In this document: positions 15,526 to 55,459 of the stretch, in pieces
How positions within the stretch are numbered: the first letter of the stretch is position 1
Layout: the number at the start of each line of letters is the position of its first letter
Assembly (NCBI RefSeq): GCF_014652575.1
Contig: NZ_BMZB01000002.1
Span: forward strand, 186,001 to 250,000
Direction of reading: 5' to 3'
DNA: 64,000 nucleotides
Origin: Asticcacaulis endophyticus
Lineage (GTDB): Bacteria > Pseudomonadota > Alphaproteobacteria > Caulobacterales > Caulobacteraceae
Notes under the pieces: generated by a model
What the model was told of the DNA's origin: nothing
Database searches by the model: none
The model's input: only the letters and a program-made list of their open reading frames with translations
Translations under genes and position numbers: made by a program

Positions 15526-15585
15526 TGGGGTTTCCTCTTATTTTTATGCTGTCACTATCCCGCAAGATCGGCCGTTAAACCAAAT

Positions 15586-19069: not shown

Positions 19070-19126
19070 CCTAGGTTTTCCTCTTTTTCAGTTCGCTTGT
19101 TGAAAGGCTCGCGAACTTCTGAAACC

Positions 19127-19151: not shown

Positions 19152-19161
19152 GCTATGCTGA

Positions 19162-19189
19162 TGCGCAACTTTTTTAACCCTGTTGCGCA
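19162..19189. repeat. 8-bp perfect inverted repeat between fecR and TBDR genes
   Basis: TGCGCAAC (19162-19169) and GTTGCGCA (19182-19189) flank a 12-base AT-rich centre. It sits 13 bases after the fecR stop and before the receptor promoter. Without a following T tract on the minus strand it is a poor terminator; an operator or mRNA hairpin is equally possible. Confidence 0.4.
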
Positions 19190-19202
19190 GGGCCTTATCC
19201 GG

Positions 19203-20159
19203 TCAGGATTTGCGGCTGAGGCGCACCTGATTTTCGCTAACCTCAGCCGTGAGGCCAAAGCTTAAAGCCACGGCTTGCGCAAAGCCCACCGGGTCAGTCG
19301 ATTGGAACAGGCCGGTGATTTCTTCGCGTGCCAGCGCCGGATCATCAATCACAATGCGGGTGTCGCTATAGCGGGCGAAGGTCGATATGGCCTCGCTTAA
19401 TGTCTGGCCTTCAAACGCGATGCGCCCCTCGCGCCAGGCCAGTGCCCGCTCAACCTTATCGGCGGGCAGGGGGGCGGTGGTCAGGGTCAGGGCCTCGGCG
19501 CGGGCCAGGGTATTGGCGGTCAGCCGTAAAGTGCCGGACTGGCGGTCGCTGAGTTCGACCACGCCTTCGCGCACCATGACCAACAGCGGGGTGGCCGCAA
19601 GATTTTGCACGGTAAAGCTGGTGCCAATGGCGCGGATGGTGGCGTCACCGGCCTTGACGATAAACGGACGGGCGGCGTCCCTGGCGACATCGAACAGGGC
19701 TTCGCCATCGATCAGGTGCACAAGGCGCTGGGCGGCACTGAAACTGACCTTGACCTTTGACGCGGTGTTCAGACTGATGACCGAACCATCAGACAAGGGA
19801 ATGACCTTCATCTCACCGCGGCGGGTTTCAAAAATCTGACCGTGATTCAGGGCAACGGCCCCAATACCAGCCGCGGCCAAACCCGCCGCCAGCCCGCCGC
19901 CCCACATCACCTGACGGCGCGAAACGGCCGGGGGCGGGGCAAATTTGGCGGCGTCAAAGCCGGTTCCCAGCGCCTGAGCGCGTTCGGACGACATTGAGAT
20001 GGCCTGGGCACGCGCAAACGCCCCCACGCGGCGGGGATCGCCCCCCAGCCACGTCTCAAGCGCACGATCCTCCTGCGGTGATAAGGCACCCCGATCCAGC
20101 CGCGCGACCCAATCGGCCGCCGTTCTGTCGATATCCTTAGCTGTCTCGTTTGCGCTCAC
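19203..20159 (-). CDS. FecR-family anti-sigma/sigma regulator
   Basis: The 318-residue protein has the FecR layout: an N-terminal cytoplasmic DUF4880 region (DRTAADWVARLDRGALSPQE, ending near AFARA), a membrane helix at about 86-106 (WGGGLAAGLAAAGIGAVAL), a periplasmic FecR beta-domain (VIPLSDGSVISLNTASKVKV, IDGEALFDVARDAARPF, IGTSFTVQ) and a C-terminal STN-like part that meets the receptor's STN domain. It relays ligand binding from the TBDR to the ECF sigma. Its start overlaps the sigma gene by 23 bases, so both are co-translated. The same trio occurs twice more in this window. Confidence 0.93.
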   Translation of the reverse strand: MSANETAKDIDRTAADWVARLDRGALSPQEDRALETWLGGDPRRVGAFARAQAISMSSERAQALGTGFDAAKFAPPPAVSRRQVMWGGGLAAGLAAAGIGAVALNHGQIFETRRGEMKVIPLSDGSVISLNTASKVKVSFSAAQRLVHLIDGEALFDVARDAARPFIVKAGDATIRAIGTSFTVQNLAATPLLVMVREGVVELSDRQSGTLRLTANTLARAEALTLTTAPLPADKVERALAWREGRIAFEGQTLSEAISTFARYSDTRIVIDDPALAREEITGLFQSTDPVGFAQAVALSFGLTAEVSENQVRLSRKS

Positions 20160-39869: not shown

Positions 39870-41258
39870 ATGACCTCATCTGCGAAATATCTGGCCGTGC
39901 GGGCCCTGCTGACGGCGGCGGGGCTGGCCATCAGCGTGCTGGCAACGGCGCAAACCGTGCCTGCGCCTGCGCCCCCTCTGGCGGCGGCGACGGTTGAACC
40001 GGAACGGATTATCCTCAATCTCACCGGCGATCCACAGCATGAGATGGCCATCACCTGGCGCTCAGCCGCCGGATCGGCTCCGGGTAAGGTGCAGTTTGCA
40101 ATATCGGAACCCGGCCCGAATTTTGTGGCCCGCACTACCGAAGTGGCTGCAAAGACCGAGGCCCTGACCCTCGATGTGCAGGAGCAGGCAGGTTTTCAGG
40201 CGACCTATAATTCGGTGGTGCTGACGGGACTGAAACCGGCCACCCGCTATGTCTACCGTGTCGGTGATGGCACGAACTGGTCGGAATGGTTTCAGTTTTC
40301 GACGGCGGGTGCGCCTGGCGATAAGTTCACCTTCATCTATCTGGGGGATGCCCAGAACAATGTCAAAGAGCACTGGTCGCGGGTATTGCGCGAAGCCTTG
40401 CGCGAAGACGGCAAGGCGTCATTTATGCTGCACGCCGGTGACCTGATCAACCGCCACGCCAGCGACCGGGAATGGGGCGAATGGTTCTCGGCCGGTGGGT
40501 TTATCCATGCGCAAACCCCGTCGATCATGACGCCGGGCAATCACGAATATGGCCGCCCGATTGATGACTCTGGGGCACGGTTGTCGCCTCAGTGGCGGGC
40601 GCAATATACCTTGCCCGAAAATGGGCCGGAAGGCCGTGACAAGCTGAAAGAAACGGCATTCTACGTCGATTATCAGGGCGTGCGAGTGATCTCGGTCGAT
40701 GCGCCGCTGCTGCATGGCGATGAAGCTGAGCGGGCCGCCCAGGTTGCGTGGCTGGATAAGATTCTGGCCAATAATCCCAACACCTGGACGGTTATCAGCC
40801 TGCATTTTCCACTCTATTCGTCTGAGCCTGACCGCGATAATCCGCGCGTGCGTGAGGCGCTTAAACCGCTGATCGATAAATACAAAGTTGATCTGCTGCT
40901 GCAAGGCCATGACCACGGCTATGCCCGCGGGGCGGCACCTACGGCGCGGTCAAAGCAACACCCAAAGGATGATGCCACGGTCTATGTGGTCTCGGTCGCG
41001 GGGCCTAAGATGTATGCCGTCTCGGATCTTGCGTGGGCCGACCGCAAGGCCTCACAGACCCAATTGTTTCAGGTGCTGACCGTTGAGGGTAAGTCCCTGA
41101 ACTATAAGGCGTTCACTGCCAATGGTGAGCTTTATGATGCGTTCTCGCTAACCAAGGACGCTAAGGGCCGCAAAACGCGCAAAGACCTGAAACCGGCAAC
41201 CCCGGAATTGTGGACGCCGGGTAAAAAACCGCCAAAAAACGGCGACCTGTCCCAATAG
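39870..41258 (+). CDS. Exported purple acid phosphatase-like metallophosphoesterase
   Basis: The ATG at 39870 gives 462 residues with a Sec signal (MTSSAKYLAVRALLTAAGL to ATAQT). An N-terminal fibronectin-III-like purple-acid-phosphatase domain (IILNLTGDPQHEMAITWRS, YNSVVLTGLKPATRYVYRVG) is followed by the metal-binding domain: YLGDAQNN, LHAGDLINRHASDREWGEW, MTPGNHEYG, SLHFPLYSS and LLQGHDHGYAR, matching the GDxx/GDxx/GNHE/H/GHxH pattern. Such enzymes release phosphate from monoesters. It is the second secreted phosphatase in 8 kb and closes module 2. The C-terminal tail (TPGKKPPKNGDLSQ) is basic and low in complexity. Confidence 0.92.
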   Translation: MTSSAKYLAVRALLTAAGLAISVLATAQTVPAPAPPLAAATVEPERIILNLTGDPQHEMAITWRSAAGSAPGKVQFAISEPGPNFVARTTEVAAKTEALTLDVQEQAGFQATYNSVVLTGLKPATRYVYRVGDGTNWSEWFQFSTAGAPGDKFTFIYLGDAQNNVKEHWSRVLREALREDGKASFMLHAGDLINRHASDREWGEWFSAGGFIHAQTPSIMTPGNHEYGRPIDDSGARLSPQWRAQYTLPENGPEGRDKLKETAFYVDYQGVRVISVDAPLLHGDEAERAAQVAWLDKILANNPNTWTVISLHFPLYSSEPDRDNPRVREALKPLIDKYKVDLLLQGHDHGYARGAAPTARSKQHPKDDATVYVVSVAGPKMYAVSDLAWADRKASQTQLFQVLTVEGKSLNYKAFTANGELYDAFSLTKDAKGRKTRKDLKPATPELWTPGKKPPKNGDLSQ

Positions 41259-41265
41259 TTACAGC

Positions 41266-41296
41266 AAAGGCGGCATATTATTTGCCGCCTTTTTTG
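41266..41296 (+). terminator. Rho-independent terminator after the purple acid phosphatase gene
   Basis: AAAGGCGGCA (41266-41275) pairs with TGCCGCCTTT (41283-41292) around a TATTATT loop and runs into TTTTTTG. It separates module 2 from the biosynthetic-looking cluster that follows. Confidence 0.88.
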
Positions 41297-41353
41297 TTGC
41301 CAATTTATAGGCTAAGTTCATGCCCGAAAAGACCAGAGGGGGATGGGCGTCAA

Positions 41354-42412
41354 TTGAGCGGTTTTCAGTCCCCTGCGGTCTCAAGCTTAATAAGTAATCT
41401 CCAAACCGAATGTACGACCGTGAATGTGGGGGGGCATGACCTGCCTGTGACGCGCAATGACGGCGGCGACGTGACCAACTATCTGTGCTGCCCCAGTGCG
41501 GCCTATATCGATTATGCGATTGATGAGCTGCGGCATTTTTCGGCCAAACCGTGGCTTAAGGGGCTGTTGCGCGGCCTGATCGAATGTGCCCGTCCGCTGA
41601 TGACGGCGTCACGGCTGGATCGGCAGGTCCAGCCCAATAATGGCCTTGTGGCCACCAACCTTTTTCCCGATCTGTCGCAGGCCGATATTGCGCAAGCCAC
41701 CCGCGCCCTGACGGCCTTATATCCGAGCCATAGCCTAATCTGGCGGTCAGTCAATGATCAGTCCATGGCTCAATTAAAGGCGCGGTTTGAGGCCGCAGGA
41801 TATCACGCTTTTCCCTCGCGGCAGATATATTTGTTCGATGCGCGGGCGGTGGCACCAAAGGTCAGCCGTGACGAAGCGCGCGACATAAAGCTGCTGGCCC
41901 GTGGCGACTATAACTGGACGCAAGGGCCATGGCGGCCCCAAGATTTCGACCGCATGGCTGACCTGTACCGGCAGCTTTATCTCGATAAATATACCTGGCT
42001 GAACCCGGTCTATACGCCTGTGTTCTTAGAGCAAGGCCACGCGACGCGGACGCTTGATCTGCACGCCCTGCGCAATCATGACGGACGGATCGACGGGGTT
42101 GTTGGCTTTATCGACCATGGCGATTCCATGGCAGCCCCTGTGGTTGGCTATGATACGGAACTGCCCGCCGAACGGGGCCTATACCGGCGGTTAATGGGGA
42201 TTGCGATGACGCGGGCGCGTGAACGGCGGCTGTTATACAATATGAGCGCGGGGGCGGCGGGTTTTAAGCGCAATCGCGGTGGCACGCCTGCGCTGGAATA
42301 TCTTATGGTCTATAATCGCCACTTGGGTCTTGGCCCGCGTCTGGCAGCGTATCTGGTGCGCAGCATTCTCAACACCATAGGTGTGCCCATTCTCAAAAGG
42401 TTTGAACTGTGA
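41354..42412 (+). CDS. GNAT-like acyltransferase of the unassigned cluster
   Basis: The start is uncertain: a TTG at 41354 follows AGAGGGGG by about 11 bases, and GTG codons at 41420 and 41447 are alternatives; the frame upstream runs into the terminator. The 352-residue product has a GNAT-like C-terminal half (MADLYRQLYLDKYTWLNPVYT, IDGVVGFIDHGDSMAAPVVGYDTEL, GLYRRLMGIAMTRARERRLLYNMSAGAAGFKRNRGG), the last part resembling an acyl-CoA binding loop and the N-acetyltransferase C-terminal strands. The N-terminal half has no family I know. It overlaps the Rieske gene by GTGA. The proposed role is transfer of an acyl or aminoacyl group within the cluster's pathway. Confidence 0.65.
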   Translation: MSGFQSPAVSSLISNLQTECTTVNVGGHDLPVTRNDGGDVTNYLCCPSAAYIDYAIDELRHFSAKPWLKGLLRGLIECARPLMTASRLDRQVQPNNGLVATNLFPDLSQADIAQATRALTALYPSHSLIWRSVNDQSMAQLKARFEAAGYHAFPSRQIYLFDARAVAPKVSRDEARDIKLLARGDYNWTQGPWRPQDFDRMADLYRQLYLDKYTWLNPVYTPVFLEQGHATRTLDLHALRNHDGRIDGVVGFIDHGDSMAAPVVGYDTELPAERGLYRRLMGIAMTRARERRLLYNMSAGAAGFKRNRGGTPALEYLMVYNRHLGLGPRLAAYLVRSILNTIGVPILKRFEL

Positions 42413-43401
42413 CCCCGGTAACGCCCTCTTCGTGGATAGCGGTGTGTGCAGCCCGTGATCTGAAACGCACGCCGCGCCGCTTTGTCATTGCGGGGCAGGC
42501 GGTGGTGGTTTTCCGCTCCGGTCGGGACATAGCGGTCTTTGCCGACATATGCCCCCATCGTCTGGCGCCGCTGTCCGAAGGCCGTGTGATCGACGGAGGC
42601 ATTGAGTGTCCCTATCATGGCTGGCAATTCGATGGCACCGGTTTGTGCCGGATGATACCGGGAGCGGTCGGGCCCGTACCGCGGGTACGTCTCGCTCCCA
42701 TGGCCGTGTGTGAACATGACGATCTGATTTTCGTATCATTGACGCCTACTGAGGCCCCACCCTATTCGGGGCGTCTTAGTGGGGCGGGGAATGTCTCCGC
42801 TCTGGTCGAAAGCCGCGTACAATCAACCCTGATCGATGTCGCCGAAAACATTCTGGACGCCAGCCATACTCACTTTACGCACAAGGGGCTGCTGCGGGGG
42901 CTTAGCGCACGCAGGCACAGGGTTCGCGTCGACATTACCGGCGGCCTTGGCTGGGTTGAGGCGCGGTATGAAGGCGAGCCGCGTCAGGAGGGCCTGATCA
43001 GCCGACTGCTGGAGGGCGGGCGTGGCATCAGCATAGGCCGCTTCATGGCGCCGGGTATTGCTGAGATCGAGTTCTGGGGGCCGCAGCGCCTCAATCTGGT
43101 GACCACGTTTCACCTGCGTCAGGAGGTGGACGGGCAGGTCGCGGGCCTGGGTATCCTGTCGGGGCCAACCGAATACGGGCTGGGTTATGTTAAGGCGGCG
43201 ATTTTCAAGCCCCTGTTTGCGGTGGCGCTGGCGCAGGATCGCCATATCCTTCAGGCCGCGTCGGGCAACCGGAAAGTGTTCGGTGACCCTAAGCCGGTGA
43301 TCGGGCCTCTGGATATATTGCGCTCATCAATTGAGGCGATTTTGAAAGGCGAGCTTCCGCCGGTGACGCATCAGCCCGTCCGTATGATTATGGAGCTATA
43401 G
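42409..43401 (+). CDS. Rieske non-heme iron oxygenase
   Basis: The 330-residue protein begins with GTG overlapping the preceding stop. It has a complete Rieske [2Fe-2S] centre, CPHRLAPLSEG (C48, H50) and CPYHGWQFDGTG (C67, H70), and a catalytic mononuclear-iron motif NILDASHTHFTH, i.e. N147-x2-D150-x2-H153-x4-H158, the bridging aspartate and iron ligands of ring-hydroxylating and demethylating oxygenases. It is therefore a true oxygenase rather than an electron carrier. The reductase and ferredoxin partners are not encoded nearby. It should hydroxylate, desaturate or demethylate an intermediate of the cluster. Its stop directly abuts the convergent ATP-grasp stop. Confidence 0.92.
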   Translation: MTPVTPSSWIAVCAARDLKRTPRRFVIAGQAVVVFRSGRDIAVFADICPHRLAPLSEGRVIDGGIECPYHGWQFDGTGLCRMIPGAVGPVPRVRLAPMAVCEHDDLIFVSLTPTEAPPYSGRLSGAGNVSALVESRVQSTLIDVAENILDASHTHFTHKGLLRGLSARRHRVRVDITGGLGWVEARYEGEPRQEGLISRLLEGGRGISIGRFMAPGIAEIEFWGPQRLNLVTTFHLRQEVDGQVAGLGILSGPTEYGLGYVKAAIFKPLFAVALAQDRHILQAASGNRKVFGDPKPVIGPLDILRSSIEAILKGELPPVTHQPVRMIMEL

Positions 43402-44538
43402 CAGCGGCGTGCCGTTCCATTCGATATCAGCGGTGGCGGCGGCCTTAAGGCCTTGGCCGCTTCGGACGGCGCGAACCGTGGCCTCAAGCAGGGCCAGCAT
43501 CTGCCAGGGCCTTGTGCTGCGGTCAGACGGATGTTCCAGCAGGTGGGACATGGTGGTGAAATCGCGCCACCACGGGCCAAACTGGCCACGACTCAGGCTG
43601 TCGGGCAGGCCATAGATCAGCATGGCCAGAGGCACGCCCATGGGTTGATCACCGCTCGCCGTGGCCGGATGGCCCTCAATCAGTGCCTTGGCCAGTTTGT
43701 CTTCGAGACGGAAAAAATGTGCGCCGGTTGTAGCGCGCGGATTACATTCCAGCACATGGATTTTGCCGGAACCATCGCGCCGGAAATCAAAGGAGATCTG
43801 ACCCGTCCAGTTTGTGTGGCGAACAAAACCGGTGACGAACTGATCAATGACCGGCTCGGATACCGGCGCAACCATAACGCCCGCGCCAATGCCGCGACCG
43901 GCGCGGTACAGCGGCCGGTACGCCTGAAGAGCCGCCACCCGACCGTGATGGGCCACGGCGTAGACACACAGTTCTTCGCCGTTTAGGTAGCGTTGGGCGA
44001 TCCATGGATCGTCCAGCGTCGGGCAAAGGTCGTCCAGGGTTTCAGGCTGCACGCGGACGCGGTCGCCAAAGCGCGACCAGATTGGCTTGAACACCCATTC
44101 GGCCGGAGAGCTGAATGTGCGCGCGTCATCCGAAGCGGTCAGTAAACGGGTTTCCGCGGCATCCGCGCCAAACCCCTGCGCCACCTGGCAAAAGCGGTAC
44201 TTATTATGAACCTCAGCCAGTCGATCAAAAGGCGGGGCCAAAAGCGGAAGGGAATAGCCAAAAAGGTCTCTGGCGGCGGCCAGATAAAACACCTCTTCGC
44301 AAGTCGGCAGGATGAGATCAATGCCGTGCCGTTCAACCACCTCGGCCACGGCGGCAGCATAGGCTTTAGGCGACGTACGGGCCGGGGGCAGCGGTGCGAA
44401 GGCTTGCGCAAAACGGCTGGCGCGCGCCAGAGGAAAGCGCAGGCTGTCGGCCAGTATGACACTGTGGCCTTCTGCCGCCAGACAGCGGGTCAGGTGCAGG
44501 GCGACGGGGGCGCGGGCACCGGCGATGAGTATGCGCAT
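43396..44538 (-). CDS. ATP-grasp ligase of the unassigned cluster
   Basis: The ATG at 44538 follows AAGGGA by about six bases and starts MRILIAGARAPVALHLTRCL, a PreATP-grasp Rossmann-like domain; an ATG at 44553 would add five residues. The 380-residue protein continues with a central domain (DLILPTCEEVFYLA, NKYRFCQVAQGFG) and an ATP-grasp fold with EWVFKPIWSRFGDRV (lysine for ATP), WIAQRYLNGEELCVYAV and VLECNPRATTGAHFF (magnesium-binding glutamate/asparagine). ATP-grasp ligases join a carboxylate to an amine or thiol through an acyl-phosphate. It is the last gene of the minus-strand operon and probably forms the amide bond of the product. Confidence 0.88.
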   Translation of the reverse strand: MRILIAGARAPVALHLTRCLAAEGHSVILADSLRFPLARASRFAQAFAPLPPARTSPKAYAAAVAEVVERHGIDLILPTCEEVFYLAAARDLFGYSLPLLAPPFDRLAEVHNKYRFCQVAQGFGADAAETRLLTASDDARTFSSPAEWVFKPIWSRFGDRVRVQPETLDDLCPTLDDPWIAQRYLNGEELCVYAVAHHGRVAALQAYRPLYRAGRGIGAGVMVAPVSEPVIDQFVTGFVRHTNWTGQISFDFRRDGSGKIHVLECNPRATTGAHFFRLEDKLAKALIEGHPATASGDQPMGVPLAMLIYGLPDSLSRGQFGPWWRDFTTMSHLLEHPSDRSTRPWQMLALLEATVRAVRSGQGLKAAATADIEWNGTPLL

Positions 44539-44540
44539 CC

Positions 44541-45800
44541 CTATCCCTTCCATATCCTCTCAACCCGCCTGAGTTTGCGCGCCGAGGTCGAAAGGGTTTC
44601 CTGTCTGAGGGCAATATGGGCGGTGATGTTGAGCCCTGACAGCAGGTTCGATACAGCTTCTTTCGCCTTCAGCGCGGCCTCTGGCGGCGTATCGATTGGC
44701 AGGATGAGGTCTATGTCGGACGGCCCGGTCTGGTTCAGGCGAAAATCCGTGATACGCCGGTCGGCATCGACAATGGCATTGCGCAGAATATCAGGCGTTA
44801 TGGTCTGGCCCGACAGTTGAAAAAGATCATCGCAGCGTCCGGCAATCTCCGTCACCGCCTGATAGGGTGAGCCGCACGGGCAGGGCGTCTGAGACAGGCG
44901 CATCAGGTCATTCATGCGGTAGCGGCACATGGCCTGTGTCGTGCGGGTGAAATCGGTAATGACGGGGCTGACGAGGTCGCTGCCCGCCACCGCTTCAAAG
45001 TCAAAGTGCATGACATCTTCGCACAGATGCAGGGTGCCATGGTCACAGGCAACACCGAGCAGGCCCTCTGTGGCCATGTAGATCTCACGCACGCGGATAT
45101 GAAACCGCGCCTCGATCACCGTCTTATCAAGCGGATCAAGGACTTCGGCACCGGAAAATATGCGCCGCAGGGGCAGGTTCATCCCCTGTTCGGCCAAAGC
45201 GCGCAAAACCTTGGGCGGGGCAATGATCGTGTCGGGGCGGTAGTCCGGCAGTCTGGCAAAAATAGCCTCCAGACCATCATTCAGGTCGAAGAACCTTAAA
45301 GTCAGGCGCGGTGTTACGGCGGCGGTCTTATAGAGGGCCGAATTCAGCGGCAGGATCAGGGCGATGCGCGCCGTATCGCGCGGAAAACGCGGCAGGGTTT
45401 TGGCCAGCATAACCCCCAGCCACGCTTGCCGCTCCTGATCTGATACCACATAAAGCCCACGATTACCGCTGGTGCCGGTACTGGCGCCAATGCTGTAGCC
45501 GCGTCTTTGAGGGGCATGGCCACTGAAGATTTTCCAGCCCTCATCCGCCGTAATGCCGGGGGCATTGAGCTGTGCAAAGTTGGCCATAAGTTGCGCCTTA
45601 TCCATGACCGGCAGGGCATCAAAACGGCAGTCATGGAGGTGTGCATAATATGGGAAGGCGGGCAGGGTTTTACGCATCAGGCGCTTAAGCCCGCGCGCCT
45701 GCCATCTGGCTACGTCTTCGCGAGTTTTTAAGAGTCTGGCCAGCCAGAGCGTGCGAAAAAAGGCGCTAAGAAACGGGATCATGACACAGCGCAATCTCAT
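44541..45800 (-). CDS. F390-synthetase-like adenylate-forming enzyme
   Basis: The 419-residue protein is an ANL-superfamily adenylating enzyme of the clade related to coenzyme F390 synthetase and phenylacetate-CoA ligase. The nucleotide loop GASTGTSGNRG (105-115) corresponds to the SSGTTG motif; IFSGAEVLD, YMATEGLLGVACD and ITDFTRTTQAMCRYRMNDL follow, then CPCGSPY, a cysteine-rich turn found in this clade, and GRCDDLFQLSGQTI at the hinge. It activates a carboxylate as acyl-AMP. The gene overlaps the MBL gene; the start may be ATG 45800 or ATG 45782. The small size suggests a reduced C-terminal domain. No carrier protein is encoded nearby. Confidence 0.85.
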   Translation of the reverse strand: MRLRCVMIPFLSAFFRTLWLARLLKTREDVARWQARGLKRLMRKTLPAFPYYAHLHDCRFDALPVMDKAQLMANFAQLNAPGITADEGWKIFSGHAPQRRGYSIGASTGTSGNRGLYVVSDQERQAWLGVMLAKTLPRFPRDTARIALILPLNSALYKTAAVTPRLTLRFFDLNDGLEAIFARLPDYRPDTIIAPPKVLRALAEQGMNLPLRRIFSGAEVLDPLDKTVIEARFHIRVREIYMATEGLLGVACDHGTLHLCEDVMHFDFEAVAGSDLVSPVITDFTRTTQAMCRYRMNDLMRLSQTPCPCGSPYQAVTEIAGRCDDLFQLSGQTITPDILRNAIVDADRRITDFRLNQTGPSDIDLILPIDTPPEAALKAKEAVSNLLSGLNITAHIALRQETLSTSARKLRRVERIWKG

Positions 45801-46533
45801 ATCCGGCCAGACTCGCGCGACGCAGCAAAGCCATGGAGTCCGTCATGGCCGCCTCATCGTCATAGACCCACCGTGCCGGGCCGCGCGGGGGGCGATCCTG
45901 AGCTATGGCCTCACCCAACCACTGGGCATCGGCGGCATAGATCAGCTTATGCTGCGGCCACACCAGACCGCAGTGGCCGGTGGCATGACCGGGTAAATCA
46001 ATGGCCAGCAGGCTGGCATCACCAAAAAGGTCGTGGCCGCGCCCGAAGGGCAGGTCGGCTACCGGAAGGTCTTCGATGGCGATCAGGCGGTCTTCGAAAT
46101 CGTCGGGCAGGAGTTCCGTGAACAGGCCATGGCGCAGCTTTTGCCACATCGGTTGGGCGTTGATTTTATCCCAGCCTGCGGCGATAAAGCGGGCCTTTTC
46201 GAACCGGCGCAGTCCGCTGATGTGGTCGGCATGGAAGTGCGTCACGAAGATATATTTCACATCATCGGCCCTAAAGCCCAGATCGGTCAGAACGTCTTCG
46301 GGCTGGATCTCAAGGCGCGGGCGCAAAACCCCGGCATAGAGCCTGAGTGCCAGACTGCGGCGTCCTGTGGTCACTTCGGGCCCATAGCCGGTATCGATGA
46401 CAATCGGGCCGTGACGCGGATGCACCCAGACGCCAAAGCGCACCCCAAGTTTGATGGTGCGCAGGTGGCCTTTGGCCAGAACCAGCCATTCGGGAATGCT
46501 GAGGGTCGCGCTGTTGGCGAAGACCGGTCTCAT
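45766..46533 (-). CDS. MBL-fold metallo-hydrolase (lactonase/thioesterase-like)
   Basis: The 255-residue enzyme has the metallo-beta-lactamase signature THFHADHISG (H99, H101, D103, H104), the preceding PIVIDTGYGP strand, the zinc-ligand histidine in LPGHATGHCGL and an aspartate in IYAADAQWL. The pattern with an N-terminal SIPEWLVLAKG insertion is like N-acyl-homoserine lactonases and related quorum-quenching hydrolases. In the cluster it could hydrolyse a lactone or thioester intermediate. Its ATG overlaps the reductase stop (ATGA) and its end overlaps the adenylating enzyme gene, so the proteins are made together. No signal peptide is visible. Confidence 0.9.
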   Translation of the reverse strand: MRPVFANSATLSIPEWLVLAKGHLRTIKLGVRFGVWVHPRHGPIVIDTGYGPEVTTGRRSLALRLYAGVLRPRLEIQPEDVLTDLGFRADDVKYIFVTHFHADHISGLRRFEKARFIAAGWDKINAQPMWQKLRHGLFTELLPDDFEDRLIAIEDLPVADLPFGRGHDLFGDASLLAIDLPGHATGHCGLVWPQHKLIYAADAQWLGEAIAQDRPPRGPARWVYDDEAAMTDSMALLRRASLAGYEIALCHDPVS

Positions 46534-47489
46534 GAGGCAAGGGTCCGGCGCAAACCTTCGCTGAAATCGATCTGCGGGTTATAGCCCAGATCACGGCGCG
46601 CCGCCGTCAGATCGAGGGTCTGGCTGAACGCCAGTATGCCTACGCCGTAAGCCGTGATCGGCGGTTCCGGCTGCCCGATACGATGTCGTGCGATATATTC
46701 GGCAGCGCGCGCCGCCGCCAGTGCCAGCCATACGGGCACGGGCCGAAAGCGCGCGGTCACGCCTGCGGCCTCACTGGCGCGGGAGATGATGTGGTGAACC
46801 GCTATGGCTTCCCCGCCTGAGATGTTGAAGGTGCGGCCATTATAGCTTTGCGGGGCGTCAATGGCGCTCACGATGGCGGCCACCACATCGTCAACATGGG
46901 TGAGGTCGGTCACTGCGGCTCCGTTGCGCAGCAGGGGCAGGCGCTGTGTTTGAGCCGCCCGGATAAGCCGTGGCAGCAGGGCGGTGTCGCCCTGACCATA
47001 GATGCCACGGGGGCGTAAGATAAGGGTGTTCAGGTCTGAGGTGCGCGCCATGTCTTCTGCGATCGCCTTGGTGGCGGCATAGTCATTGACTGGCGGTGGT
47101 AGCGGGGCGTCCTCAGACAGGTTCAACTGGTCGCAAAACCGAAAGGCGACGCTGGGCGAGGATATGGCCACAAAGCGCCTGACCTTAAGTTGGCGGGCGA
47201 TAGTGATGGCGTGTTGTGTGCCGGTGACATTGGCCTGTTCAAACGCCGTGCGCAGCCCCCACGCCGACGACAGGGCCGCGGCATGAACAAAGGCATCGGC
47301 CTGATCCCACGCATTAAGGGATGACGCATCGCCAAGGTCTATAGTTTCAAATTCAATCCCATCGGCGCGCAGGGCTTCGCCTTTCAGGACATCACGGCCG
47401 AGCCCCAGCACCTGATGACCAAGGCCATGCAGATGGCGGCACAGATGTCCGCCCAGAAAGCCCGTGGCACCGGAAACGACAATTTTCAT
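46530..47489 (-). CDS. NAD-dependent epimerase/reductase, 3-beta-HSD-like
   Basis: The 319-residue protein is an extended short-chain dehydrogenase. The NAD-binding SGATGFLGGHL (6-16), a conserved D51 region (IDLGD), SSPS and YAATKAIAED with the catalytic Y137 and K141 are all present, along with RPRGIYGQGD. Its likeness is to 3-beta-hydroxysteroid dehydrogenase/OleD-type enzymes that reduce beta-keto groups. Directly downstream of a ketosynthase (ATGA overlap), it most likely reduces or oxidises the beta-keto acyl product. The cofactor preference cannot be assigned with confidence. Confidence 0.9.
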   Translation of the reverse strand: MKIVVSGATGFLGGHLCRHLHGLGHQVLGLGRDVLKGEALRADGIEFETIDLGDASSLNAWDQADAFVHAAALSSAWGLRTAFEQANVTGTQHAITIARQLKVRRFVAISSPSVAFRFCDQLNLSEDAPLPPPVNDYAATKAIAEDMARTSDLNTLILRPRGIYGQGDTALLPRLIRAAQTQRLPLLRNGAAVTDLTHVDDVVAAIVSAIDAPQSYNGRTFNISGGEAIAVHHIISRASEAAGVTARFRPVPVWLALAAARAAEYIARHRIGQPEPPITAYGVGILAFSQTLDLTAARRDLGYNPQIDFSEGLRRTLAS

Positions 47490-48466
47490 AGGATCATCGC
47501 CAGTCCGCCCAGAGACATACCGGCGGAAGTGCCCAGTATCAGAGTGCGCAGACCTGCCGGATGGCGTTGCCGCGCCAGATGCAGGGCGGTCGGAATAGAG
47601 GCCGCGATCTGGTTACCGTAATCGCGCACAATGTTCATGACGATATCGGCAGAAAAACCGCACCGGCGGGTCAGGTGCGCCAGAGCGCCGGGGCTGGCCT
47701 GATGAGGCACAATCAGTTCGACATCGTCGCGCTGCCATCCGGCCTGATCCAGCAGGCGGTCCAGAAACGGCTCGAAATGGCGCAACGTCAGCTTAAACAA
47801 AGCGTCGCCTTCCATGTGAAACCGGCTGTGCCTGTCGAAAGCCTCACGATCGGTATGATAGTCATAGCGGGTGCCACCCGCCCCCAGTGAGCAGGCGTCA
47901 TAGCCCGACGGATAGGTTTCCATGCGTGAGGCCAACAGGCGGCCATCGCCTTGGCCGGTGATGACAACCGCCGCCGCGCCGTCACCGAACAGGGCCGCCG
48001 TCGCCGGGTCCTGCGCCCAGGGCAGGGCGCGTGAGGCGACTTCTGAGGCGACCACCAGCGCCACCTTATTGCCGACCATGCGGCTGGCGATATCAAGCGC
48101 CGTGACAAAGCTCAGGCAGGTCGAATTGATATCGAACGCCATGCAACTACCGTCGGTTATGCCTAACCGCGCCTGTATCAGAGGCGCCGTGGACGGGATC
48201 GACTGATAGGGCACGGCGGCGGCAAACAGAATGAACTCTACATCGTTTGGCGACAGGCGGGCTTCGTTGAGGGCTGCGCGGGCCGCACTTACAGCCAGGT
48301 CAATCTGGTCTTCCTTATCGCAGACATAGCGACCATAAACCCCTGAGCGCCGGTAAAGCCATCCGGCCGGGCGTCCGATAAGGGCATCAAGATCTTCTGA
48401 CAGGCGTAAGGTTTCGGGCACGGCCATGCCACTGCCTAATATTGTCAAAGGACGAACTTCCGTCAC
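47486..48466 (-). CDS. KAS III-like 3-oxoacyl synthase
   Basis: The 326-residue protein has a full KAS III catalytic triad: C117 (DINSTCLSF), H255 (LIVPHQAS) and N285 (DYGNQIAAS), and the C-terminal GTSAGMSLGGLAMIL glycine-rich loop where FabH has GAGLTWG. The N-terminal part (GSGMAVPETLRLSEDL, WLYRRSGVYGRYV) is divergent from housekeeping FabH. It starts at GTG 48466. It probably condenses an acyl-CoA starter and a malonyl or acyl unit. As first gene of the minus-strand operon KAS III-reductase-MBL-adenylate enzyme-ATP-grasp it defines the pathway as acyl-derived. It is not the chromosomal fatty-acid fabH by context. Confidence 0.9.
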   Translation of the reverse strand: MTEVRPLTILGSGMAVPETLRLSEDLDALIGRPAGWLYRRSGVYGRYVCDKEDQIDLAVSAARAALNEARLSPNDVEFILFAAAVPYQSIPSTAPLIQARLGITDGSCMAFDINSTCLSFVTALDIASRMVGNKVALVVASEVASRALPWAQDPATAALFGDGAAAVVITGQGDGRLLASRMETYPSGYDACSLGAGGTRYDYHTDREAFDRHSRFHMEGDALFKLTLRHFEPFLDRLLDQAGWQRDDVELIVPHQASPGALAHLTRRCGFSADIVMNIVRDYGNQIAASIPTALHLARQRHPAGLRTLILGTSAGMSLGGLAMIL

Positions 48467-48587
48467 GCTGGTCCCGTTCTCAACTCTTTGGCTCGCCCCT
48501 ATGGAATGCCCGCCAAACTATATGTAGCCCGCCGGTCATGGCAAGCGACTGTTTGTCCTGAATATCAGCTTTCAGGGAGGTAAACCT

Positions 48588-48632
48588 ATGGCCCGGATAT
48601 TAAAGTGGAGATATCAAGCACGGCTACTTTAA
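48588..48632 (+). CDS. Possible 14-residue small ORF with perfect SD
   Basis: AGGGAGG (48574-48580) stands seven bases before an ATG (48588) that encodes MARILKWRYQARLL and a TAA. The peptide is cationic. It lies antisense in the gap between the Lrp gene and the KAS III operon, and the coding bases overlap an inverted repeat. It may be a leader peptide, a small protein or chance. Only the SD supports it. Confidence 0.25.
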   Translation: MARILKWRYQARLL

Positions 48633-48633
48633 T
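48599..48633 (-). terminator. Inverted repeat downstream of the Lrp gene
   Basis: ATTAAAGT (48599-48606) and ACTTTAAT (48626-48633) form an 8-bp stem with a 19-base loop, seven bases beyond the Lrp/AsnC stop on the minus strand. The stem is AT-rich and no T run follows, so termination is weak; it could be an operator. Confidence 0.3.
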
Positions 48634-48639
48634 CTGTAT

Positions 48640-49125
48640 TTATCCGTGGAATATTATCGGTGGGGTTGTCAGGTTTCTGACTTCGCGCATGACGAAACTG
48701 CTTCTAATCTTGGCAACATGGGGCAGGGTCGACAGTTCCCGGCGATAGATTGAGTCGTAGGTTTCAAACGAGGCCACGTTCAGGATCATAATAAAGTCGG
48801 TGTCGCCTGAAACAAAGCTGCAGAAAGACATGGATGGACTTCTGAGAACGGCCTGTTCAAAATCGTTCAAGGCGTGTTCTGCCTGAGAAGACAACTCAAT
48901 CGAGACTATAACAATCATGCTCAGGCCAAGCGTTTTGTAATTCAGATTGACTGTGTAACCTGAAATTATGCCGGATTCTTCTAAGATTTTACGGCGACGG
49001 GCAACGGCTGTACTTGACAGATTGAGCCGCTCGCCTAACGCAACATCCGACATACGCCCGTCTTCAGTCAATTGTCGTAAGATTTTGTAATCTGTAGCAT
49101 CAAGCCGCTTAGTGTCGAAATTCAT
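48640..49125 (-). CDS. Lrp/AsnC-family transcription regulator
   Basis: The ATG at 49125 has AGAGGA nine bases upstream (a TTG one codon earlier is less likely). The 161-residue protein has an N-terminal winged HTH (LDATDYKILRQLTEDGRMSDVALGERLNLSSTAVARRRKILEESGII) and a C-terminal RAM/ligand domain (IVIVSIELSSQAEHALNDFEQAVL, VSGDTDFIMILNVASFETYDSIYRRELSTLPHVAKIRSSFVMREV). Lrp-type regulators sense amino acids. It is divergent from the TBDR-M20-M20-protease operon, whose expression it probably controls in response to peptide-derived amino acids. It could also act on the KAS III operon, whose start lies 174 bases beyond its stop. Confidence 0.93.
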   Translation of the reverse strand: MNFDTKRLDATDYKILRQLTEDGRMSDVALGERLNLSSTAVARRRKILEESGIISGYTVNLNYKTLGLSMIVIVSIELSSQAEHALNDFEQAVLRSPSMSFCSFVSGDTDFIMILNVASFETYDSIYRRELSTLPHVAKIRSSFVMREVRNLTTPPIIFHG

Positions 49126-52227: not shown

Positions 52228-53832
52228 ATGACTGTGTCCAGACGTTTTTTGAGTGCCCTGCTGCTGGCGACCTGCCTGACAGTGCCGTCTTTAGCCCATG
52301 CCGAGGCCAGCCCCAAACTGAAAGCCGCCGCTCAGGCCGGCGTCAAGGACCGCACGGTTCTGGCCCAGCAGATGGTCGATTCGATCTATAGCTTCGCCGA
52401 GCCGGGCTTTCAGGAATATAAGACTTCTGAATATGTGACCGGTATTCTGGAAAAGAACGGTTTTACCATCACCCGTGGTGTCGCCGGTATCCCTACCGCC
52501 TGGACGGCGACGTGGGGTGAGGGCGGGCCGCTGATTGCGCTCGGTTCCGATATTGACGGGCTACTGGGCCTGTCGCAGGTGCCGGGCAATCCGGTGATCA
52601 CGCCGCAGGTGCCGGGTGCGCCCGGTCACGGCGAAGGCCACAACTCCGGTATGCCGCTGGTGGTGGTGGCAGCATTAGCCGCCAAGGATGTCATGGTGGC
52701 CAACAACATCAAAGGCCGCCTGATGATCTGGCCCGGCGTGGCTGAAGAGCTGCTGGCGACCAAGGCCTTTTATGTCCGTGACGGCGTGTTCAAAGGCGTT
52801 GATGTCTCCATCTTCACCCACGTCAGCAACGATCTGGGCACTTCATGGGGGCCCATGTTGAGCGGTATGGTGTCGGTCGAATATAGTTTTAAGGGCAAGA
52901 CTTCGCACTCGGCCGGCGCACCGTGGGCGGGTAAGTCCGCGCTCGATGCCGTGGAGTGGATGGATCTAGCGTGGAACATGCGCCGCGAGCATTTGCCAGT
53001 GACGCAGCGTTCGCACTACATCATCACCAATGGCGGCAGTCAGCCCAATATCGTCCCCGGCGACGCCAGTGTCTGGTACTATTTCCGGGAGCTGGATTTC
53101 GCCTCCGTGCGTAATATGTACGAGACGGGTAACACCATTTCCGAAGCGGCGGCGCAGGCGACGGGCACAACCGTGACCCGCAAACTGCTGGGCTATGCGG
53201 CACCAAACTACGGCAATAAGCCTCTGGCCGAAGCCGCCTATGCCAATATGCAAAAGGTCGGTTTGCCGCAATGGTCAGCCGATGATCAGGCCTTTGCCAA
53301 GGCCGTGCAGGAAACCAACGGCTTTAAACTAAAGCCGCTGACGACCACGCTTTCGCCTTTGTCGACGCCGGAAATGCGGGCGGGCATGAACTTTGGCGGC
53401 TCGGACGATATCGGTGATGTCATGTGGACCGTGCCGACCATCACTATTTTCTATCCCTCAAACGTGCCCAACACTATCGGCCATAACGTGACCGCGGCTA
53501 TGGCTATGGCGACGCCGATCGCCCACAAAGGGGTCGTCAATGGCGCTGAGGTGTTGGCCATGACCATCATGGATATCGTCACCACCCCGTCACTGGTGAA
53601 AGAGGCCAAGGCCTTCCAGCAGAACGTGCAGTTCAAGGACGTCAAATACGATCCGGTGCTGACGGCTGAGGATACGCCGGCCATCCACCTCAACAAGGAA
53701 ACCATGGAGCGTCTGCGCCCGCAGATGGAGGCGTTCTATTACAATCCGTCCAAATATAGCTCCTACCTTGAGCAACTGGGCGTCAAATATCCGGCGGTGG
53801 CCGTGCCGCCTGCCGCCAAAAGCGGTCAATAA
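52228..53832 (+). CDS. Exported M20-family metallopeptidase/amidohydrolase, copy 1
   Basis: The 534-residue protein has a Sec signal (to SLAHA) and an M20D/AbgB-like body. The metal-site regions are IALGSDIDGL (aspartate), GHGEGHNSGM (histidine) and GVAEELLATKAF (general-base and metal glutamates), and NTIGHNVTAAMAM supplies the last histidine. The dimerisation domain begins at VEYSFKGKTSHSAGAPWAGKSAL. M20D enzymes cleave amino-acid amides, such as aminobenzoyl-glutamate, or dipeptides. ACAGGAG precedes the ATG. It is followed after 28 bases by a close paralogue. A periplasmic location is unusual for M20 enzymes, in keeping with a TBDR-linked scavenging role. Confidence 0.9.
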   Translation: MTVSRRFLSALLLATCLTVPSLAHAEASPKLKAAAQAGVKDRTVLAQQMVDSIYSFAEPGFQEYKTSEYVTGILEKNGFTITRGVAGIPTAWTATWGEGGPLIALGSDIDGLLGLSQVPGNPVITPQVPGAPGHGEGHNSGMPLVVVAALAAKDVMVANNIKGRLMIWPGVAEELLATKAFYVRDGVFKGVDVSIFTHVSNDLGTSWGPMLSGMVSVEYSFKGKTSHSAGAPWAGKSALDAVEWMDLAWNMRREHLPVTQRSHYIITNGGSQPNIVPGDASVWYYFRELDFASVRNMYETGNTISEAAAQATGTTVTRKLLGYAAPNYGNKPLAEAAYANMQKVGLPQWSADDQAFAKAVQETNGFKLKPLTTTLSPLSTPEMRAGMNFGGSDDIGDVMWTVPTITIFYPSNVPNTIGHNVTAAMAMATPIAHKGVVNGAEVLAMTIMDIVTTPSLVKEAKAFQQNVQFKDVKYDPVLTAEDTPAIHLNKETMERLRPQMEAFYYNPSKYSSYLEQLGVKYPAVAVPPAAKSGQ

Positions 53833-53860
53833 TTACACATAATCTCACGGAGTAAACTTC

Positions 53861-55459
53861 ATGCACATTTCCAAACGCTCACTTATGGCCGCGCTGATGG
53901 CGAGCGCCCTAGTCCTGCCCGCAGGTCTGGCTCAGGCCCAGGCCAGCCCCAAATTGAAAGCCGCGGCTCAGGCAGGCGTCAAGGATCGCGCCGTCCTGAC
54001 CCAGCAGATGGTCGATTCGATCTACAGCTTCGCTGAGCCCGGTTTTCAGGAATATAAGACCTCTGAGTACGTCACCGGCATCCTAGAGAAGAACGGCTTT
54101 ACTATTACGCGCGGTGTCGCCGGTATCCCTACCGCCTGGACGGCGACCTGGGGTGAGGGCGGGCCATTAATTGCGCTCGGTTCCGACATTGACGGGCTGC
54201 TGGGTCTGTCGCAGGTGCCGGGCAATCCGGTGATCACGCCGCAGGTGCCGGGGGCTCCCGGTCACGGCGAAGGCCACAATTCCGGTATGCCGTTGGTGGT
54301 CGTGGCCGCTCTGGCCGCTAAGGATGTGATGGTCGCCAACAACATCAAAGGCCGTCTGATGATCTGGCCCGGCGTGGCTGAAGAACTGCTGGCGACCAAG
54401 GCCTTTTATGTCCGCGACGGCGTGTTCAAGGACGTCGATGTGTCAATCTTCACCCATGTGGCCAATGAACTGGGGACATCATGGGGCCCCGCCGGCAATA
54501 ACGGCATGGTGTCGGTGGAATACACATTTAAGGGCAAGACCTCGCACTCGGCGGGTGCGCCGTGGGCCGGTCGCAGCGCCCTTGACGGGGTGGAACTGAT
54601 GAACGCCGCCTGGAACATGAAGCGTGAGCATCTGCCGGTCACGCAGCGGTCGCACTACATCATCACCAATGGCGGCAGCCAGCCAAATATCGTCCCCGGC
54701 GAGGCCAGTGTCTGGTACTATTTCCGGGAGCAGACTTTTGAGTCCATCCGCAACCTTTATGAGACCGGCAATACGATCTCAGAGGCCGCCGCTAAGGCCA
54801 CCGGCACGACGGTCACCCGCCGCGTTCTGGGCTATGCCGCGCCGAACTATGGCAACAAGCCTTTGGCCGAAGCCGCCTATGCCAATATGCAAAAGGTCGG
54901 CCTGCCCAAATGGTCAGCCGATGATCAGGCCTTTGCCAAGGCCGTGCAGGAAACCAACGGCTTTGCGCTGAAACCGCTGACGACCAAACTGGCACCGCTG
55001 TCGACGCCGGAAACGCGCGGGCCGTCTATGGGCGGCGGATCAGACGATATTGGTGACATCATGTGGACGGTGCCCACCATCACCATCCGCTTCCCGTCCA
55101 ATATCCCCAATACTATCGGCCACAACGTCACGGCGGCCATCGCTATGGCCACCCCGATTGCCCACAAAGGGGCGGTCAATGGCGCTGAGGTTCTGGCCAT
55201 GACCATCATGGATATTGTGACGACCCCGTCGCTGGTGCAGTCCGCCAAGGACTATCAGCAGACCGTGCAGTTTAAGGATATGAAATATGATCCGGTCCTG
55301 ACCGCCGAAGATACCCCAGCCATCCACCTCAATAAGGAAACGATGGAGCGTCTGCGTCCACAAATGGAGCCGTTCTATTACGATCCGACCAAGTATAGCT
55401 CTTACCTTGAGCAGCTTGGTGTCAAATATCCGGCGGCGGCAGTCCCTCCGGCTAAGTAA
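53861..55459 (+). CDS. Exported M20-family metallopeptidase/amidohydrolase, copy 2
   Basis: The 532-residue product is a tandem paralogue of the upstream M20 enzyme. All metal-site motifs are identical (GSDIDGL, GHGEGHNSGM, GVAEELLATK, IGHNVTAAIAM), and the first 200 mature residues are almost the same. Differences concentrate in the signal peptide, around THVANELGTSWGPAGNNGM (two extra residues) and in the loop LSTPETRGPSMGGGSD. At the DNA level many third positions differ while the protein is unchanged, which points to an old duplication under selection. CGGAG precedes the ATG. The two copies may differ in substrate range. Confidence 0.9.
   Translation: MHISKRSLMAALMASALVLPAGLAQAQASPKLKAAAQAGVKDRAVLTQQMVDSIYSFAEPGFQEYKTSEYVTGILEKNGFTITRGVAGIPTAWTATWGEGGPLIALGSDIDGLLGLSQVPGNPVITPQVPGAPGHGEGHNSGMPLVVVAALAAKDVMVANNIKGRLMIWPGVAEELLATKAFYVRDGVFKDVDVSIFTHVANELGTSWGPAGNNGMVSVEYTFKGKTSHSAGAPWAGRSALDGVELMNAAWNMKREHLPVTQRSHYIITNGGSQPNIVPGEASVWYYFREQTFESIRNLYETGNTISEAAAKATGTTVTRRVLGYAAPNYGNKPLAEAAYANMQKVGLPKWSADDQAFAKAVQETNGFALKPLTTKLAPLSTPETRGPSMGGGSDDIGDIMWTVPTITIRFPSNIPNTIGHNVTAAIAMATPIAHKGAVNGAEVLAMTIMDIVTTPSLVQSAKDYQQTVQFKDMKYDPVLTAEDTPAIHLNKETMERLRPQMEPFYYDPTKYSSYLEQLGVKYPAAAVPPAK

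What the first reader, a model, noticed from the sequence alone, without database searches (positions are those of the whole stretch)
41354..48466. Compact unassigned biosynthetic cluster: acyltransferase, Rieske oxygenase, ATP-grasp, F390-synthetase-like, MBL, reductase and KAS III
Seven enzymes in 7.1 kb form two convergent, translationally coupled groups whose stops abut at 43398/43399. Seen in sequence: complete KAS III triad (C117, H255, N285), intact reductase YxxxK, MBL HxHxDH, adenylating loop, ATP-grasp motifs, Rieske CxH/CxxH plus N-x2-D-x2-H-x4-H, and a GNAT-like protein. Inference: acyl condensation, beta-keto reduction, hydrolysis, carboxylate activation, amide formation, hydroxylation and acyl transfer, giving a small hydroxylated acyl-amide. 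There is no carrier protein, NRPS/PKS module or transporter, so it is outside the standard cluster classes I know.
Basis: partly seen in the sequence, partly recalled or inferred. Interest (0 to 1): 0.85.

Follow-up and report, generated by a model that had tools for sequence, protein, structure and literature searches.

The report
Lipid cluster with swappable head groups
Seven neighbouring enzyme genes form an unassigned pathway, probably for an unusual lipid, built from a conserved four-gene core shared by distant bacteria plus a head-group part that differs from lineage to lineage.

Summary
In detail: seven intact enzyme genes, two convergent coupled groups, 41354-48466. A same-genus genome has matching flanks joined directly, so the cluster comes and goes as one ~7.4-kb unit.

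It is far from local. KAS III, OleD-like reductase, metallo-beta-lactamase (MBL) hydrolase and F390-like ligase form a core, complete in 96 of 105 non-redundant loci selected by the ligase: Alpha-, Beta- and Gammaproteobacteria (672 of 5426 complete E. coli genomes), Bacillota, Fusobacteriota. Beside the core lies ATP-grasp (57 of 95 loci), a BtaA-type DUF3419 protein (12), GT28 glycosyltransferase (12), sulfotransferase (4), fatty-acid hydroxylase/desaturase/PAP2 (4) or GT21 (2). These coincide in one locus only, and some have been exchanged repeatedly. The KAS groups with the chain-joining ketosynthases CorB/MxnB, not FabH or OleA.

Best reading: the core joins two acyl chains into a reduced, carboxyl-activated lipid backbone; the variable genes attach its head group, here an amino acid, with acyl transfer and oxidation. 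The lipid and head-group inference is fairly strong, two chains about even. No product is known, and searches of an open-licence paper library showed no description.

The parts
41258..48640 (.). The unit present here and absent from the same place in a same-genus genome (G089)
   Evidence: Homology to G089 ends at window 41257 and resumes at 48641; in G089 the two flanks are 110 bp apart. Flanking genes are 96% and 99% identical.
41354..42412 (+). GNAT-type acyltransferase (Acetyltransf_6)
   Evidence: PF13480 22.5 bits, cut-off 22; 27 invariant columns over 34 cluster sequences; 10 of 18 relatives match PF13480 at E<=0.01
42409..43401 (+). Rieske non-haem iron oxygenase
   Evidence: PF00355 4.9e-22; best NCBIfam hit is a sterol monooxygenase model, 46.3 bits against a cut-off of 600; cluster, iron ligands and bridging Asp conserved
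43396..44553 (-). ATP-grasp ligase
44541..45800 (-). F390-synthetase-like (PaaK-type) adenylating enzyme
   Evidence: TIGR02304 291.2 bits, cut-off 251.9; nearest solved structure is a phenylacetate-CoA ligase, 2.8e-9; S107, G109, Y241-x-A-T-E-G, D298, R322, K409 invariant in 16
45766..46533 (-). Metallo-beta-lactamase-fold hydrolase with a full two-metal ligand set
   Evidence: PF00753 1.2e-18; H99 H101 D103 H104 H183 D202 H251 in 111 of 111
46530..47489 (-). Extended SDR reductase, nearest named family OleD (2-alkyl-3-oxoalkanoate reductase)
   Evidence: NF042422 204.8 bits, cut-off 580; next families 162 and 97.6; all 23 cluster members tested match it, as they do HpnA
47486..48466 (-). KAS III-type ketosynthase, relative of CorB/MxnB
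   Evidence: Profile against solved structures: CorB (4yuc) 271.5, 4v2p 268.9, best FabH 228.8 bits; tree
48517..48544 (-). Promoter-like site upstream of the KAS gene (TTGCCA-16-TATAGT)
   Evidence: Consensus scan, 10 of 12; 5 such sites found in the region against 3.4 expected, so weak

Best explanation
The cluster makes a membrane-type or surface lipid in two stages. Stage one (core: KAS, SDR, MBL, F390-like) builds the backbone. The KAS joins two acyl chains by a C-C bond, as CorB/MxnB do. The OleD-like reductase turns the resulting beta-ketone into a hydroxyl. The MBL hydrolase frees the acid from its thioester (or opens a lactone). The F390-like enzyme adenylates the carboxyl group and passes it to a nucleophile. 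Stage two installs the head group and differs between lineages. In this window the ATP-grasp enzyme couples an amino acid or amine, the GNAT-type enzyme transfers an acyl group to it, and the Rieske oxygenase hydroxylates or otherwise oxidises the product. Shown here: gene content, intact active sites, conservation, exchange of tailoring sets, presence or absence as a unit, and the kinship of KAS and SDR. Inferred: that the product is a lipid (about 0.75), that two chains are joined (about 0.5), that ATP-grasp adds an amino acid (about 0.6), the order of steps, and the roles of MBL, GNAT and Rieske.
For: Core of four complete in 96 of 105 non-redundant loci; tailoring sets vary. In 95 full-core loci ATP-grasp 57, DUF3419 12, GT28 12, sulfotransferase 4, FA hydroxylase 4, GT21 2, never together except GT28+GT21 in one locus; outside the clusters, in 1182 kb of the same loci, these six gave 1 hit in all. 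DUF3419 needs 5 changes on the core tree, sulfotransferase 2, GT21 2, and three DUF3419 loci keep GNAT and Rieske (L029, L090; L059; Pfam check on the two L090 proteins only), so DUF3419 stands in for ATP-grasp. DUF3419 is the Pfam family matched by BtaA (PMC6642084, passages), which puts a homoserine head on diacylglycerol (PMC10685587, passages). KAS: CorB and 4v2p (recalled as MxnB) outrank every FabH in the profile search; 31 cluster KAS plus these two form a 97/97 group apart from 10 FabH and 2 OleA-like rows; the position of OleA's catalytic Glu is I/L/V in 110 of 110 ungapped rows, V in CorB/MxnB, F in 10 of 10 FabH. MxnB joins two beta-keto thioesters and has two binding tunnels (PMC5724707, passages). 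SDR nearest to OleD. ATP-grasp model resembles C-N ligases.
Against: No product, expression or knockout data. OleD match is far below the family cut-off (204.8 against 580). A published tree puts MxnB/CorB inside the FabH clade (PMC4578411); my tree lacks PpyS, DarB, PqsD and BioZ, is midpoint-rooted, and its two OleA-like rows were named by me from a PRK09258 hit and the Glu, one being a long branch. Lacking the Glu base, the KAS could simply use malonyl-ACP like FabH. MBL's closest named family is an AHL lactonase (51 bits), which would also fit a signal molecule. No NCBIfam model matched the five DUF3419 proteins tested, so BtaA activity rests on the Pfam family alone. The 'Rieske' protein of L083, in a DUF3419 cluster, shows only the catalytic-type domain in Pfam. 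The fold match of the ATP-grasp does not separate amide ligases from PurK or biotin carboxylase. 9 of 105 loci lack part of the core (some are cut by contig ends), and 5 of 95 full-core loci have none of my six modules. Modules are mostly inherited: 23 changes in all on the tree against 47.8 in shuffles and a minimum of 7, so the 95 loci are not independent.
Confidence: 0.5

Rival explanations
1. Single-chain acyl-amide. The KAS elongates one acyl chain with malonyl-ACP, the SDR reduces it to a 3-hydroxyacyl chain, MBL releases it, and F390-like and ATP-grasp enzymes form an amide that GNAT and Rieske modify.
For: CHN triad without a Glu base; FabH-type Pfam domains; all steps represented by intact enzymes.
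Against: KAS is nearer to CorB/MxnB than to FabH, SDR nearer to the two-chain reductase OleD than to any other named family. BtaA-type, GT21 and sulfotransferase partners suit a lipid alcohol rather than an amide.
Confidence: 0.25
2. A diffusible signal or antibiotic: a two-chain pyrone, butenolide or lactone, with the MBL acting as lactonase or self-protection and the tailoring genes decorating it.
For: MxnB makes an antibiotic pyrone (PMC5724707); MBL resembles AHL lactonases; patchy distribution, 4 of 385 class genomes and 10 of 398 phylum genomes at E<=1e-30, and presence or absence as a unit are typical of secondary metabolism.
Against: No transporter, receptor or resistance gene in the unit; partners in other loci include BtaA-type, GT21, fatty-acid hydroxylase, desaturase and PAP2 enzymes.
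Confidence: 0.17
3. An Ole-like pathway to beta-lactones or olefins with replaced enzymes (F390-like in place of OleC, MBL in place of OleB).
For: SDR nearest to OleD; same four activities in count: condense, reduce, adenylate, hydrolyse (Ole scheme recalled).
Against: OleA's Glu is I/L/V in 110 of 110 ungapped rows; KAS apart from OleA-like rows in the tree; no alpha/beta-hydrolase; the ligase gives no Pfam hit at all at E<=0.01; olefins offer no site for the head-group enzymes.
Confidence: 0.08

Closest known systems
CorB and MxnB, stand-alone ketosynthases of corallopyronin and myxopyronin
   Same: CHN triad, aliphatic residue instead of the OleA/PpyS Glu, conserved Gln two residues before it; best solved-structure match; 97/97 group with the cluster KAS. 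The chain 4v2p is labelled only 'ketosynthase'; that it is MxnB is recalled
   Different: They finish large PKS/NRPS assembly lines and make alpha-pyrones; here there is no assembly line in the unit, and a reductase, hydrolase and ligase follow
OleABCD olefin / beta-lactone pathway (scheme recalled)
   Same: Reductase closest to OleD; similar sequence of activities
   Different: KAS is not OleA (no Glu), no OleB- or OleC-type protein, MBL and PaaK-type enzymes instead
BtaA betaine-lipid headgroup transferase (DUF3419)
   Same: Proteins of this Pfam family occur in sister clusters in the place of the ATP-grasp gene
   Different: Not in this window; substrate in the clusters unknown; no NCBIfam match; BtaB not searched for
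TIGR02304 'F390 synthetase-related protein'
   Same: The window ligase is over its cut-off
   Different: The family has a name; the searches made returned no paper that gives it a function
MBL-fold acyl-homoserine lactonases (AttM)
   Same: Nearest NCBIfam family to the MBL protein
   Different: 51 bits against a cut-off of 390

Membership tests
TIGR02304 F390 synthetase-related protein | Score over the curated cut-off | tested here: met
   291.2 bits against 251.9
FabH (housekeeping KAS III) | Score over the TIGR00747 cut-off | tested here: not met
   182.9 against 292.1; the genome has a separate FabH with 404.7 bits
CorB/MxnB chain-joining ketosynthases | CHN triad and no Glu at the OleA E117 / PpyS E105 position | tested here: met
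   feature from PMC4578411
CorB/MxnB chain-joining ketosynthases | Same branch in a tree | tested here: met
   97/97 with FabH and OleA-like rows as the only alternatives, midpoint root; a published tree puts CorB/MxnB within FabH
CorB/MxnB chain-joining ketosynthases | Condenses two beta-keto thioesters | not testable with these tools
   Needs enzyme assay
CorB/MxnB chain-joining ketosynthases | Partner PKS/NRPS assembly lines | tested here: not met
   None in the unit 41258-48640; other regions of the genome not examined
OleABCD pathway | OleA catalytic Glu | tested here: not met
   I90; I/L/V in 110 of 110 ungapped relatives, E in 2 of 2 OleA-like rows
OleABCD pathway | OleC (AMP-binding) and OleB (alpha/beta-hydrolase) partners | tested here: not met
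   Pfam scan of all seven proteins
OleABCD pathway | OleD score over cut-off | tested here: not met
   204.8 against 580, though the best-scoring family
ATP-grasp C-N ligases | Fold and catalytic Lys/Glu/Asn | tested here: met
ATP-grasp C-N ligases | Amino-acid or amine substrate | not testable with these tools
   PurK and biotin carboxylase folds match nearly as well
Anti-phage defence systems | Match to a PADLOC model | tested here: not met
   0 of 7 proteins match at E<=1e-4
antiSMASH/MIBiG cluster classes | Rule or reference-cluster match | not testable with these tools
   No such library on hand

The most novel reading that the evidence does not exclude
A widespread, undescribed class of two-tailed lipids whose chains are joined by a carbon-carbon bond instead of through glycerol or sphingoid base: a diacylglycerol or ceramide mimic made by KAS-SDR-MBL-F390. 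It would receive amino-acid, homoserine, sugar or sulfate head groups from interchangeable genes, in lineages from Asticcacaulis to Rhizobium, E. coli, Paenibacillus and Fusobacterium.
Probability: 0.33. Interest if true: 0.92.

Novelty: new variant of a known kind. Interest (0 to 1): 0.73.

Why it matters
If right, one conserved four-gene core explains an unassigned gene family (TIGR02304 ligases and their neighbours) in at least three phyla, including about one in eight of the complete E. coli genomes searched, and defines a lipid class whose head group can be read from the neighbouring gene. It would give BtaA-type and ATP-grasp enzymes new substrates and a ready test bed for how bacteria exchange lipid head groups. 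Even if the product is a single-chain amide, the conserved core with swappable tailoring sets is a concrete, testable orphan pathway.

Tried and rejected
Ole olefin pathway: rejected as membership (no OleA Glu, no OleB/OleC). Housekeeping FabH: rejected. Anti-phage defence: no PADLOC match. RNA elements: no Rfam match at gathering score in the window. Lineage-restricted cluster: rejected by distribution. Simple vertical inheritance in Caulobacteraceae: disfavoured, because the window KAS sits with two Rhizobium rows (98/90) and apart from the five other Caulobacteraceae rows, one of them of its own genus; whether G089 lost or never had the unit is not settled. G068 as a second empty site: uninformative, its two flanks lie on different contigs. 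Ladderane-type explanation: one paper mentions an F390-synthetase-annotated ligase in a fatty-acid cluster (PMC2649909, passages), with no other link. An early gene-calling script lost high-GC genes and an overlap rule dropped MBL in L026/L027; I replaced it with profile scans. No fold was obtained for the GNAT protein.

Literature: the searches cover open-licence PMC papers only. Searches returned no paper; one search listed 25 of 98; two searches listed all 10 and all 3; two searches were for BtaA/DUF3419 and MxnB/CorB. None of the listed titles or passages describes this cluster. Read: PMC4578411 parts 1-2 of 3; passages only of PMC5724707, PMC6642084, PMC10685587, PMC2649909, PMC5467263.

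Rows left out of counts: of 24 other family genomes with a hit, 20 stretches were fetched and the 18 with other cluster genes counted; L044 and L045, ligase relatives at 25% with no other cluster gene, were dropped, and the four weakest hits were not fetched. Of the hits, six more stretches were fetched; G488, G524, G863 and G653 were not. The 80 named loci are the best of 444 relatives, not a random sample. Of 65 plasmid records with a hit (30 listed) I chose 13 for spread of organisms and counted them; a 14th (H3) and L140 were viewed but not counted. 118 loci were reduced to 105 at 90% ligase identity; of 96 full-core loci, L105 (cut by a contig end) was left out of the 95 used. One search used the redundant set. 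Module models for DUF3419, GT28, sulfotransferase, GT21, FA hydroxylase, desaturase and PAP2 were built from 2-8 sequences of these same loci, so seed loci match by construction and distant variants may be missed.
Full report
1. The observation. Family scans agree with each name. The GNAT-Rieske pair on the plus strand and the KAS-SDR-MBL-F390-ATP-grasp series on the minus strand meet tail to tail, their stop codons abutting in CTATAG at 43396-43401. All five same-strand junctions overlap by 4 to 35 bp. A 10-of-12 promoter-like site lies about 50 bp upstream of the KAS start, but such sites are only slightly more frequent than in shuffles.

2. The unit. The window's genome is of the genus of Asticcacaulis sp. 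UBA2476 (94% ligase identity). The same-genus genome G089 has the left-hand phosphoesterase and the right-hand Lrp-type regulator at 96% and 99% identity, yet no TIGR02304 match at E<=0.001. Aligned to the window, its sequence matches up to 41257 and again from 48641, with 110 bp between. The seven genes therefore come or go as one piece of about 7.4 kb. In the KAS tree the window sits with two Rhizobium rows (98/90) rather than with the five other Caulobacteraceae rows. This favours horizontal gain, but loss in G089 is not excluded.

3. Distribution. TIGR02304 hits at E<=0.001 occur in 25 of 199 genomes of the family (5 over the cut-off). At E<=1e-30 they occur in 4 of 385 genomes of the class and 10 of 398 of the phylum: patchy. 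Of the 14 control genomes one, Deinobacterium chartae, also has a match over the cut-off; its surroundings were not looked at. A scan of the named genome collection gave 444 relatives, of which the best 80 were kept: Rhizobium, Mesorhizobium, Bradyrhizobium, Shinella, Ruegeria, Roseobacter, Hyphomonas, Maricaulis, Sphingomonas, Brevundimonas, Ramlibacter and others. Plasmid records added Paenibacillus, Pontibacillus, Fusobacterium, Paracoccus, Ketogulonicigenium, Paraburkholderia, Burkholderia and E. coli (65 records with a match, 13 read and counted). In E. coli the core lies between narI and tRNA-Tyr/purU in the chromosome read, and 672 of 5426 complete genomes match the E. coli stretch.

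4. Core and variable part. I scanned 118 loci with profiles of the seven genes and of the partners found beside them, and reduced them to 105 at 90% ligase identity. KAS, SDR, MBL and F390-like are all present in 96 of 105; some of the nine others are cut by contig ends. In 95 of these 96, the gene beside the core is ATP-grasp (57), DUF3419 (12), GT28 (12), sulfotransferase (4), fatty-acid hydroxylase with desaturase and PAP2 (4) or GT21 (2); five have none of these. The modules exclude one another, except GT28 with GT21 in L053, and outside the clusters the same loci held one hit to all six together in 1182 kb. Pfam identifies examples of the partners; the PAP2 name comes from the E. coli annotation. 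On a tree of KAS+SDR+F390, the DUF3419 state needs 5 changes, sulfotransferase 2, GT21 2, GT28 1 and fatty-acid hydroxylase 1. All states together need 23, against 47.8 in shuffles and at least 7, so modules are inherited for long stretches but exchanged several times; some of the deciding nodes are weak. In L029, L090 and L059 the GNAT and Rieske genes stay while ATP-grasp is replaced by DUF3419 genes, so the two look like alternatives for one step.

5. What the partners say. BtaA is strongly matched by DUF3419, and in algae the family tracks betaine lipid (20 of 21 positive strains; PMC6642084, passages). BtaA makes diacylglycerol-O-homoserine from diacylglycerol and SAM (PMC10685587, passages). 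No NCBIfam model matched the five cluster DUF3419 proteins tested. The two GT21 proteins have HpnI, a hopanoid glycosyltransferase, as nearest NCBIfam model, far below cut-off; that GT21 holds ceramide glucosyltransferases is recalled. The E. coli-type set carries fatty-acid hydroxylase, desaturase and PAP2. Together these point to a lipid core that bears a hydroxyl or carboxyl group to be capped. This is inference from association.

6. What the core says. The KAS profile finds CorB (4yuc, 271.5 bits) and 4v2p (268.9; labelled 'ketosynthase', recalled as MxnB) ahead of every FabH (best 228.8) and of the entries I recall as OleA (3fk5, 3row; 105-107) among solved structures. In a tree, 31 cluster KAS and CorB/MxnB form one 97/97 group against 10 FabH and 2 OleA-like rows; the last are hits to PRK09258 that I named OleA-like. 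At the position of OleA Glu117 the cluster KAS have I/L/V in 110 of 110 ungapped rows, CorB/MxnB V, FabH F in 10 of 10 and the OleA-like rows E in 2 of 2; the Gln two residues earlier is kept in 108 of 110 and in CorB/MxnB, but also in one FabH and one OleA-like row. Kresovic and colleagues note the same valine in MxnB/CorB and explain it by a beta-keto substrate (PMC4578411, parts 1-2 read); their tree, however, puts MxnB/CorB within FabH. MxnB joins two beta-keto chains and has two tunnels (PMC5724707, passages). The window SDR's nearest named family is OleD, the 2-alkyl-3-oxoalkanoate reductase (204.8 bits, then 162 for its Shewanella sister family and 97.6 for HpnA), but far below its cut-off. 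All 23 cluster members tested match OleD and also HpnA, with best E-values of 2e-80 and 2.9e-45; rankings for the other 22 were not shown. MBL keeps seven metal ligands in 111 of 111, SDR keeps YxxxK in all 109 ungapped rows, and ATP-grasp keeps K156, D256, E269 and N271 in 70 of 70. The ligase keeps adenylation-type motifs and the C-terminal lysine K409 in 16 of 16.

8. Mechanism. Most likely the KAS joins two acyl chains, the SDR makes the beta-hydroxyl, MBL frees the acid, and the F390-like enzyme activates it. Then ATP-grasp adds an amino acid or amine, GNAT acylates and Rieske oxidises. I put about 0.75 on a lipid product, 0.5 on two chains and 0.6 on amino-acid addition.

9. Novelty. The protein families are known. 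The combination, its breadth and the exchange of head-group genes were not described in anything that searches showed; five of these returned nothing, one was seen in part (25 of 98), and all cover open-licence papers only. I file it as a new variant of a known kind (a lipid or secondary-metabolite pathway without a known product), with a bolder reading kept in the section on the most novel reading.

Noticed in passing
L140:6001-12882 (E. coli UPEC 26-1 chromosome): The four-gene core with PAP2, fatty-acid hydroxylase and desaturase genes sits between narI and tRNA-Tyr/purU; 672 of 5426 complete E. coli genomes match the stretch. Searches returned no paper on it.
   Followed up: partly
L130:7905-11493 (Pseudomonas amygdali megaplasmid): An F390-like ligase and an ATP-grasp-like protein occur without the rest of the core among many uncharacterised plasmid genes; in L145 (Pseudomonas Leaf58 plasmid) KAS, SDR, MBL and ligase are scattered over about 9 kb.
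   Followed up: no
L090:4515-9059 and L059:3715-12303: Two different DUF3419-type proteins accompany one core cluster, suggesting two aminocarboxypropyl-type transfers.
   Followed up: partly
L083:11239-12093: A Rieske-oxygenase relative in a DUF3419 cluster that shows only the VanA_C-type catalytic domain in Pfam and no Rieske domain.
   Followed up: no
L132:1-4604 (Paracoccus alcaliphilus plasmid): NRPS, phosphopantetheine-binding, AMP-binding and sulfotransferase genes lie just upstream of a core cluster, so a carrier-protein system may join in there.
   Followed up: no
L119 and L072: Contigs labelled Flavobacteriaceae and Sulfopaludibacter carry clusters that group with alphaproteobacterial ones in the core tree; wrong binning or recent transfer.
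   Followed up: no
window 52228-55459: Two tandem M20-type peptidase genes, about 84% alike in DNA by cross-matches with G089, downstream of a TonB receptor and an Lrp-type regulator just outside the cluster.
   Followed up: no
window 9772-20159: Plant-polysaccharide use locus: GH10, MGH1-like, GH43 and GH28 hydrolases with a TonB receptor and FecR.
   Followed up: no
G000:C1:457796-458731: A further KAS III-type gene in the same genome, below the FabH cut-off (207 bits), role unknown.
   Followed up: no
window 41266-41292: Terminator-like hairpin (10 pairs) directly after the phosphoesterase, at the left edge of the unit.
   Followed up: no
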